From Pseudomonadota bacterium (lineage in GTDB: Bacteria; Desulfobacterota; S145-22), in assembly GCA_015493505.1 (NCBI GenBank), contig WGDA01000172.1, positions 1 through 36,727 on the forward strand: a DNA stretch of 36,727 nt. The letters are read 5' to 3'. The position numbers and the translations under genes are program-made. Position 1 is the stretch's first letter, and each line of letters begins with the position of its first letter. The notes under the pieces were generated by a model. The model was given only the letters and a program-made list of their open reading frames with translations. It had not been told where the DNA came from and did no database searches. This document shows positions 35,218-36,727 of this stretch, piece by piece.

Positions 35218-36447
35218 ATGAAAAAGTCCATCGCTATCGTCGGAACCCTCGACACGAAGGGAGAGGAAATCTTTTTCCTAAAAACCCTTATTGAAGAAAG
35301 GGGGCATACCCCTCTTGTCATTGACACAGGAATCCTGGGGACTCCTGGCATGAAGGCCGATATTCCGAGAGAGGACGTGGCAAAAGCAGGAGGCGAATCC
35401 CTCAGGGCCCTCCGGCAAAAAAATGATGAGTCCTATGCTCAGAAGATCATGTCTGTCGGTCTGAAAAAAATAGTCTCCTCCCTTTTGGAATCGGGGAAAA
35501 TTCATGGGATGATTGCGATCGGCGGAGGCCAAGGATCCGTTATCGCCTCCCCTGCCCTCAAATATCTCCCTTTTGGTTTCCCCAAGCTACTGGTCTCGAC
35601 AAAGGTGTCTCAGGCCGGTATCCGGCCCTACATTGGGATCAAGGACATTCTTGTCCTACCGCCTGTGGCCGATTTGGCAGGAATCAACAGGTTGACCGAA
35701 AAGGTTCTCGTCAATGCCGCGGGAGCCATCTCCGGGATGGTCGAAATGAAACCCGGAAAAAAAGGGAAAAGAAAGCCTCTGGTCGTGATGAGTATGAACG
35801 GCACCATCACAGATTGTGGGCTAAGGGTCAAAAATGCCCTGGAAGGCAAGGGGTATGAAGTCTTGGTCTTCCATTCCATTGGCACGGGCGGGGAGGCGCT
35901 GGAGGAATATGTGAAAACAGAAAGTGATGTTGCCTGTGTCATCGAGCTGGCCGTTAACGAAATCGGCAATCACTTGCTTGGTGGCCTGGCCTCCTCCGGC
36001 CCGCATCGCCTGACTTCTGCCGGCAAGCGTGGAATTCCCCAGATTGTTGTTCCCGGAAGTGCTGACTTTATAAACTTTCTTGGCGTTACAACGGTTCCGG
36101 AAAGCTTCAAAGGTAGAAAAATACATCCCCACAATCCCCAGGCGACCATCGTCAGGACAAACGCGGAGGACAATAAGCTCCTGGGGAAAACGATTGCGGA
36201 AAAGCTGAATCAGGCCACGGGGCCTGTCGCAGTCCTGTGGCCCCAAAAAGGGCTCTCATCCGTGGACAGGCCGGGAAAACCATTTTGGGACCCCGAAGCG
36301 GATCAGGCTTTAATGAAAAGCCTTCAGAAAAATTTAACCCCGAAGATCCCCCTCATTCAGGCAAACGCCCATATCAACGATCCGGCCTTTGCCCAAAAGG
36401 TCGTGGAGATTTTTGACAAGATTGTCTCCATGGAGAAGGAAGCCTGA
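35218..36447 (+). CDS. Tm-1-like ATP-binding / UPF0261 protein
   Basis: This 409-residue protein opens KSIAIVGTLDTKGEE (3-16), typical of the Tm-1-like ATP-binding family (COG5441), and has IGGGQGSVIASPALKYLPFG, KLLVSTKVSQAGIRPYIG and the C-terminal VPGSADFINF and NAEDNKLLGKTIAEKL. The plant member Tm-1 is a virus-resistance ATP-binding protein; the bacterial role is unknown, though homologues often sit in catabolic operons. ATG 35218 is preferred over TTG/ATG further up (35200); AAGG precedes it. It is 49 bases after dctM and two before the truncated ligase. Confidence 0.88.
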   Translation: MKKSIAIVGTLDTKGEEIFFLKTLIEERGHTPLVIDTGILGTPGMKADIPREDVAKAGGESLRALRQKNDESYAQKIMSVGLKKIVSSLLESGKIHGMIAIGGGQGSVIASPALKYLPFGFPKLLVSTKVSQAGIRPYIGIKDILVLPPVADLAGINRLTEKVLVNAAGAISGMVEMKPGKKGKRKPLVVMSMNGTITDCGLRVKNALEGKGYEVLVFHSIGTGGEALEEYVKTESDVACVIELAVNEIGNHLLGGLASSGPHRLTSAGKRGIPQIVVPGSADFINFLGVTTVPESFKGRKIHPHNPQATIVRTNAEDNKLLGKTIAEKLNQATGPVAVLWPQKGLSSVDRPGKPFWDPEADQALMKSLQKNLTPKIPLIQANAHINDPAFAQKVVEIFDKIVSMEKEA

Positions 36448-36449
36448 TC

Positions 36450-36578
36450 ATGGCCGACGGTTCAATCCCCTACTGGAATCCCTTCCTTGAAACCCTGCCA
36501 AGGGAAAAGTTGGTTCAGATTGAGCTGAAGAACTTTCGGGCCATTCTCCAGACAGAGTCTGGAGTTTTTTGCGGATGA
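36450..36578 (+). pseudogene. 5' remnant of a second PaaK-like CoA ligase gene
   Basis: Forty-two codons starting two bases after the UPF0261 gene encode MADGSIPYWNPFLETLPREK followed by LVQIELKNFRAILQ, which is the standard N-terminus of phenylacetate-CoA ligase-like proteins (normally ~430 residues, continuing with a SPFYR-type motif). After about residue 34 the match stops, the frame runs into a hairpin-T6 and ends at TGA 36576. The gene was therefore cut, presumably by the event that brought the adjacent insertion sequence. Before that it probably activated the acid handled by this operon. Confidence 0.65.
36546..36570 (+). terminator. Intrinsic-terminator-like hairpin inside the ligase remnant
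   Basis: CTCCAGAC-AGA-GTCTGGAG is a perfect eight-pair stem followed directly by TTTTTT. It would end transcription of the UbiD-TRAP operon just before the insertion sequence. Confidence 0.8.
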
Positions 36579-36631
36579 AATAACTGCGCCGATTGTCCTT
36601 AATCCTCCATCAAATAAAAAAGGACACCCCG

Positions 36632-36660
36632 TTGTCACTGAATATTCAGTGCGTTAGAAT
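36632..36660 (+). promoter_or_regulatory. Probable transposase promoter inside the insertion sequence
   Basis: TTGTCA (36632-36637) and TAGAAT (36655-36660) are 17 bases apart, with the perfect palindrome in the spacer. Transcription would start near 36667, after the left arm of the inverted repeat. Confidence 0.5.
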
Positions 36661-36703
36661 GAGTTAAAGGAAAACAAACTAACACCAACGGGGTGAAGAC
36701 ATT

Positions 36704-36727
36704 ATGCAACAAAAAGCGTTGCCTTAC
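36704..36727 (+). CDS. Start of a probable transposase gene (truncated by the window)
   Basis: ATG 36704 opens MQQKALPY and stays open to the end of the window. GGGGTGAAG lies about six bases upstream as ribosome site. The product is inferred from its position in the element only. Confidence 0.4.

What the first reader, a model, noticed from the sequence alone, without database searches (positions are those of the whole stretch)
36620..36727. Insertion sequence leader built to block read-through translation of transposase
The right arm of the inverted repeat (36686-36695) contains the ribosome site GGGGTG of the ORF at 36704. The left arm (36625-36634) lies upstream of the predicted start of the internal promoter. 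A transcript entering from outside would fold and hide the ribosome site; one from the element's own promoter would not. This is the logic known from IS10 and IS50. The palindrome within the promoter spacer could be an operator.
Basis: partly seen in the sequence, partly recalled or inferred. Interest (0 to 1): 0.5.

Follow-up and report, generated by a model that had tools for sequence, protein, structure and literature searches.

The report
RNA lock against read-through transposase expression
The left end of this bacterial jumping gene carries a short sequence that, only when transcription leaks in from a neighbouring gene, should fold over and hide the ribosome site of the transposase; relatives keep this pairing with different letters, so it looks like a real and widespread safety catch.

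Summary
The window ends inside the left end (from 36597) of an IS1380-family insertion sequence. Arms 36625-36634 and 36686-36695 are a perfect 10-bp inverted repeat; the right arm holds the ribosome site (GGGGTG, 8 nt before the ATG at 36704). The best promoter (TTGTCA-17-TAGAAT) places the start near 36667, so only transcripts entering from outside contain the left arm. Computed cost of opening the ribosome site: 14.6 kcal/mol in the read-through RNA, 4.3 in the own-promoter RNA.

Relatives support this. In 53 aligned leaders the outer stem is kept in 96-97% of cells, with at least 7 Watson-Crick replacements on a transposase tree. The palindrome in the promoter spacer is not a conserved operator: its place holds a second stem whose sequence is replaced again and again (31 changes; 7-12 when slid). 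Across 141 IS1380 leaders (24 protein clusters), 98 have a significant arm for the ribosome-site region, against 6 of 123 other genes. ISEcp1, ISPme1 and IS1247 lack it. P3 is not supported on the tree; 13 of 53 leaders gain under 3 kcal/mol.

Verdict: an IS10/IS50-like read-through lock, apparently unreported for IS1380. No experiment was done.

The parts
36597..36727 (+). left end of an IS1380-family insertion sequence, cut by the contig end; first 17 bases CCTTAATCCTCCATCAA are the terminal repeat region
   Evidence: identical 131 bases on C89 with a different left flank; aligns with the left ends of L102, L115, L178, L128; related elements such as L117, L120, L125 begin 106-107 nt before their ATG, here 107
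36625..36634 (+). left (anti-ribosome-site) arm of stem P1, CACCCCGTTG
   Evidence: P1 kept in 95.6 and 96.9% of cells over 53 leaders
36632..36637 (+). predicted -35 TTGTCA; its TTG is the 3' end of the left arm
   Evidence: TTG at this place in 50 of 53 leaders
36636..36651 (+). palindrome CACTGAATATTCAGTG = stem-loop P2 in the promoter spacer
36653..36657 (+). 5' strand of possible stem P3 (GTTAG), partner 36679-36683
   Evidence: not supported by the tree-based test
36655..36660 (+). predicted -10 TAGAAT; transcript start inferred near 36667
   Evidence: TAnnnT here in 48 of 53 leaders, together with TTG in 46 of 53, spacer 17 (39) or 18 (7)
36679..36683 (+). 3' strand of possible stem P3 (CTAAC)
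36683..36695 (+). weak alternative hairpin CACC-AACGG-GGTG predicted in the own-promoter transcript
   Evidence: fold
36686..36695 (+). right arm of P1, CAACGGGGTG, containing the ribosome site GGGGTG 36690-36695
36704..36727 (+). start of the transposase ORF (MQQKALPY; continues on C89 as MQQKALPYKYEAEQSISSEMTGL)
   Evidence: 11 of 15 residues identical to the start of the IS1380 transposase in L115
32168..36447 (+). co-directional upstream genes DctP, DctQ, DctM, UPF0261, a possible source of read-through
36546..36564 (+). terminator-like hairpin followed by T6 between those genes and the element

Best explanation
This is a cis-acting RNA lock at the left end of an IS1380-family insertion sequence. 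The promoter of the transposase gene also encodes an arm complementary to the ribosome site. RNA polymerase starting at the element's own promoter begins after that arm, so the ribosome site stays mostly open. RNA polymerase arriving from a neighbouring gene transcribes the arm; the RNA folds (P1, with the promoter-spacer hairpin P2 shortening the loop) and the ribosome site is buried, so insertion next to an active gene does not raise transposase. Shown: sequence, position, predicted energies, compensatory evolution, recurrence in unrelated subgroups. Inferred: the transcription start, folding in the cell, and the effect on translation.
For: Perfect 10-bp arms, the right one over the ribosome site. 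Opening cost 14.55 against 4.30 kcal/mol. In 53 aligned leaders 86.9% of cells pair and 81 cells have double changes against 29.6 in shuffles (0 of 500); slid versions pair in 24.7-45.1%. On a transposase tree of 45 rows without the window: P1 7 Watson-Crick replacements (5 at one pair), P2 31 against 7-12 when slid. Opening cost over the 53: external mean 9.8, own 4.8, shuffled upstream 4.3; 40 of 53 gain over 3 kcal/mol. In 141 IS1380 leaders, 98 at p<=0.05 and 66 at p<=0.01, with unrelated arm sequences, e.g. TCCTTTTGGTC/GACCAAAAGGA, CCTCCTCTGG/CCAGAGGAGG, TCCTCCTTTCG/CGAAAGGAGGA; 12 of 24 protein clusters have median p<=0.05. Control: 6 of 123 other genes at p<=0.05. The left arm overlaps the best predicted promoter in 74 of 98 (shuffles about 35) and the start falls between the arms in 77 of 98 (shuffles 46.1).
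Against: P3 is not supported on the tree (2 changes, slid versions 2-7). 13 of 53 leaders gain less than 3 kcal/mol. P1 itself is nearly invariant within the closest group, so most of its covariation is at one pair. ISEcp1, ISPme1, IS1247 and the Pseudonocardia, Acidiphilium, Nostoc and Lactiplantibacillus members gave no significant repeat; Rhodococcus (p 0.11) and ISAzs3 (p 0.09) are borderline. Two larger IS1380 clusters (11 rows around L036, none at p<=0.01; 7 rows around L034, two) mostly lack it, so it is not a defining trait of the family. 82 leaders fall in one cluster. The own-promoter transcript also has a weak hairpin over the ribosome site. No RNA or protein was measured.
Confidence: 0.82

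Rival explanations
1. The arms and the palindrome are DNA sites: binding sites of the transposase or operators for a repressor that acts at the promoter.
For: They overlap the -35 and spacer of the predicted promoter; the P1 arm sequence is highly conserved in the closest group.
Against: The P2 sequence is replaced throughout while pairing is kept; other IS1380 subgroups have arms of unrelated sequence, always at the ribosome site. In 18 elements inspected, arm-like motifs (one mismatch allowed) between the end of the gene and an automatically guessed right end were found in 4, in two of them the same motif at the same place.
Confidence: 0.08
2. The repeat lowers transposase translation constitutively, from every transcript, rather than only from read-through.
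For: The start site is predicted, not mapped; in L184, L187, L189 and some others the best predicted promoter does not lie at the left arm.
Against: TTG and TAnnnT at fixed places in 46 of 53 leaders with 17-18 nt spacing put the start after the left arm.
Confidence: 0.08
3. Chance inverted repeat, or a by-product of the conserved promoter and ribosome site.
For: The ribosome site and the TTG of the -35 are themselves conserved for other reasons.
Against: Shuffles, control genes and compensatory changes.
Confidence: 0.02

Closest known systems
IS10 and IS50 read-through protection (recalled: Davis et al. 1985; Krebs and Reznikoff 1986; not read here)
   Same: Sequence at the transposase end pairs with the translation start only in transcripts that enter from outside.
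   Different: Different transposase family (IS1380 against IS4, recalled); here the left arm is part of the promoter (-35 and spacer) and a second covarying hairpin fills the spacer. No promoter-like site on the minus strand in 36400-36727, so no sign of an IS10-type antisense RNA.
IS1380 family (NCBIfam NF033539; ISEcp1, ISPme1, IS1247, IS1678)
   Same: Transposase and terminal-repeat homology of the closest relatives; IS1678 of Enterococcus faecium also has a strong pairing.
   Different: ISEcp1, ISPme1 and IS1247 lack a significant pairing.
ISPpu9 5'-UTR control (PMC8450116; listing, abstract start and passages seen)
   Same: Secondary structure of the transposase 5'-UTR affects its expression.
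   Different: That system works with two small RNAs; the present one needs only where transcription starts.

Membership tests
IS1380 family | transposase over the NCBIfam NF033539 cut-off | tested here: inconclusive
   The window ORF is 23 codons with C89: no match by itself. Relatives with the homologous left end (L115 212 bits, L102 217 bits, cut-off 180) pass.
IS1380 family | family-type terminal inverted repeat at the left end | tested here: met
   CCTTAATCCTCCATCAA aligns with the left ends of relatives; in L125 left CCTTAATCCACCATCAA matches right CCTAAATCCACCACCAA.
IS1380 family | right end and target-site duplication | not testable with these tools
   The right part of this element was not identified in the assembly.
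IS10/IS50-type read-through lock | inverted repeat whose right arm holds the ribosome site | tested here: met
IS10/IS50-type read-through lock | left arm inside the element but upstream of the transposase transcript start | tested here: met
   element starts 36597, arm 36625, predicted start about 36667; the start is predicted only
IS10/IS50-type read-through lock | ribosome site hidden in the long RNA, open in the short RNA | tested here: met
   computed only: 14.55 against 4.30 kcal/mol
IS10/IS50-type read-through lock | outside transcription does not raise transposase in cells | not testable with these tools
   needs reporter assays

The most novel reading that the evidence does not exclude
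Locks against read-through are a recurrent design of bacterial insertion sequences: arms complementary to the ribosome site have arisen many times with unrelated sequences, within IS1380 and in other families, often by building the arm into the promoter so that a polymerase starting at home cannot copy it.
Probability: 0.5. Interest if true: 0.65.

Novelty: new variant of a known kind. Interest (0 to 1): 0.5.

Why it matters
It would show that a control known from two classical elements is common in a large transposase family and evolved repeatedly, and it supplies an alignment, a covariance model and named elements to test. It would also mark which IS1380 elements (such as ISEcp1) lack the lock and may respond to neighbouring transcription.

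Tried and rejected
Rejected: palindrome as operator (sequence not conserved, pairing is). P1 arms as transposase sites shared by both ends. A known Rfam family: no match for the window stretch or for eight relatives. RNAalifold on A2 recovered only six P1 pairs, probably because one row (L113) has an insertion that splits the columns; the structure used for counting was set by hand from the window fold, the L015 comparison and a register scan, so P2 and P3 registers were chosen on A2 itself. A viral-contig search with the 77-aa P0003 found no relatives.

Dropped rows: of 60 distinct leaders, A2 uses 49. Left out were L122 (cut by contig edge), L161 (short), L133 (near-duplicate), and L152, L162, L163, L166, L170, L171, L175, L179, set aside on reading because their leaders differ; of these L162 (GTTGCCTCGTTG/CAACGAGGCAAC) and L171 (GCTCCTATACTTTC/GAAAGATAGGAGC) show other long pairings by eye. 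Leaving these out favours the A2 pair counts. One search takes all of the 60 but L122 and those with under 95 bases upstream. In one search the starts of L046, L050, L063 and L090 were moved by hand to an in-frame GTG that fits L100, and L096 to an earlier ATG; L098 was dropped as a copy. ISEnca1 (L183) was dropped because IS26 cuts its leader.

Other IS families with the same test: IS110-like 5 of 22 tested (8 of 30 skipped) and ISL3-like 4 of 17 tested (13 of 30 skipped) at p<=0.05. Suggestive only; in IS110 the leader may hold bridge RNA (recalled).

Full report
What is there. The window is one whole contig (C172) of a 2.8-Mb genome in 174 contigs. One genome of its phylum sample (G131) has a contig of the same length, 55,781 bases, as the Smithella sp. 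M82 contig that gave a 100% match to its transposase, so the phylum is probably that of Smithella. The window ends inside an insertion sequence. Its last 131 bases recur at 100% on contig C89 with a different left flank, which puts the element's left end at 36597. C89 adds 45 bases, giving MQQKALPYKYEAEQSISSEMTGL. This peptide alone matches no family, but left end, leader and start codon align with elements L115, L178, L128 and L102, and the L115 and L102 transposases pass the NCBIfam IS1380 cut-off (212 and 217 bits against 180). No further copy of this left end was found in the genome. Two copies of another IS1380 member (L020, L024) and an unassigned C-terminal piece on C83 are present.

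The finding itself. The stretch folds with z -3.82. The long RNA must pay 14.55 kcal/mol to open 36690-36695, the RNA starting at 36667 4.30.

Relatives. A transposase alignment (A1) found 131 relatives in one scan of genome contigs; 80 were kept, 75 had a usable start, 60 leaders were distinct. Alignment A2 holds 53 leaders: the window, 49 of those 60, and L015, L020, L025. For the structure P1+P2+P3, 86.9% of cells pair (shuffled 78.9; slid 24.7-45.1), with 81 double-change cells (shuffled 29.6), 0 of 500 shuffles as high. Because related sequences inflate such counts, I counted Watson-Crick replacements on a transposase tree of 45 rows without the window: P1 7, P2 31 (slid 7-12), P3 2 (slid 2-7). 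So P1 and P2 are supported and P3 is not. One P1 pair alternates between T-A (40 of 53) and C-G (10 of 53), with 3 unpaired, the ribosome site changing between GAGGTG and GGGGTG to match.

Promoter built from the arm. TTG is at the end of the left arm in 50 of 53 leaders and TAnnnT downstream in 48; 46 have both, 17 nt (39) or 18 nt (7) apart. The same DNA therefore serves as -35 and as the arm that a home-started transcript cannot contain.

Beyond the closest group. A family search of 395 genomes found IS1380 matches in 112. With 40 further stretches, the scanned group and seven plasmid elements, 141 leaders were tested: 98 at p<=0.05 and 66 at p<=0.01; of 24 protein clusters, 12 have median p<=0.05. 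Arms differ entirely between clusters. The same test on 123 other genes gave 6 and 2. Among the 98 significant leaders the best promoter's start lies between the arms in 77 (shuffled 46.1), and 74 left arms overlap the promoter (shuffled about 35); most of these are from one large cluster. A covariance model (R1) hits 38 of 395 genomes. Of the 30 loci fetched there, the transposase start follows the hit directly in 23; L217 has only an interior piece further on; six (L191, L193, L197, L204, L208, L218) show no transposase by the A1 profile, of which L191 and L197 end within 13 bases of the hit and L193 keeps about ten codons.

Against. ISEcp1, ISPme1 and IS1247 have no significant pairing. 13 of 53 leaders gain under 3 kcal/mol. 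No transcript or protein data exist here.

Setting. Upstream genes DctP, DctQ, DctM and UPF0261 point into this copy, with a terminator-like hairpin between, so read-through is plausible here; the C89 copy has a divergent neighbour by my reading.

Literature. Searches listed no paper that by title or start of abstract describes this for IS1380; the library lacks most subscription journals. I saw passages of PMC8450116, PMC4265352 and PMC9330008, and only listings of the rest. The IS10 and IS50 mechanism is recalled. I judge this a new variant of a known kind.

Noticed in passing
L190, L194, L200, L202, L206, L212, L213, L214: The conserved leader is followed by only the first 39-61 codons of the transposase, then by nothing or by later pieces: internally deleted copies that keep the left end.
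   Followed up: partly
L007 1441-1568 (genome G001, same genus): The left 68 bases of the element are joined to a long perfect hairpin (GTCACAGCCACCGGC and its complement) at a contig end; possibly a truncated or miniature element.
   Followed up: no
L131-L147, L149, L150, L173: One Dehalococcoidia genome (CATOSD) carries at least 20 copies of a related IS1380 element.
   Followed up: no
L125, L120, L107, L103 (guessed elements of 1.82-1.89 kb): The guessed element ends leave roughly 300 bases after the transposase, of unknown role.
   Followed up: no
window 36450-36575: A 41-codon ORF between UPF0261 and the element resembles, from memory, the start of a phenylacetate-CoA ligase; no Pfam match.
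   Followed up: partly
L255, L249, L254 (IS110-like), L285, L276 (ISL3-like): Transposase genes of other families also show arms that pair with the ribosome site or start codon, e.g. CGTGGTCGTCCTCCCGG/CCAGGAGGGCGACCATG.
   Followed up: partly
alignment A2, columns 81-84 with 104-107: The small hairpin CAYC-AACGR-GGTG over the ribosome site is itself conserved and excludes P1; it may tune translation from the own-promoter RNA.
   Followed up: no
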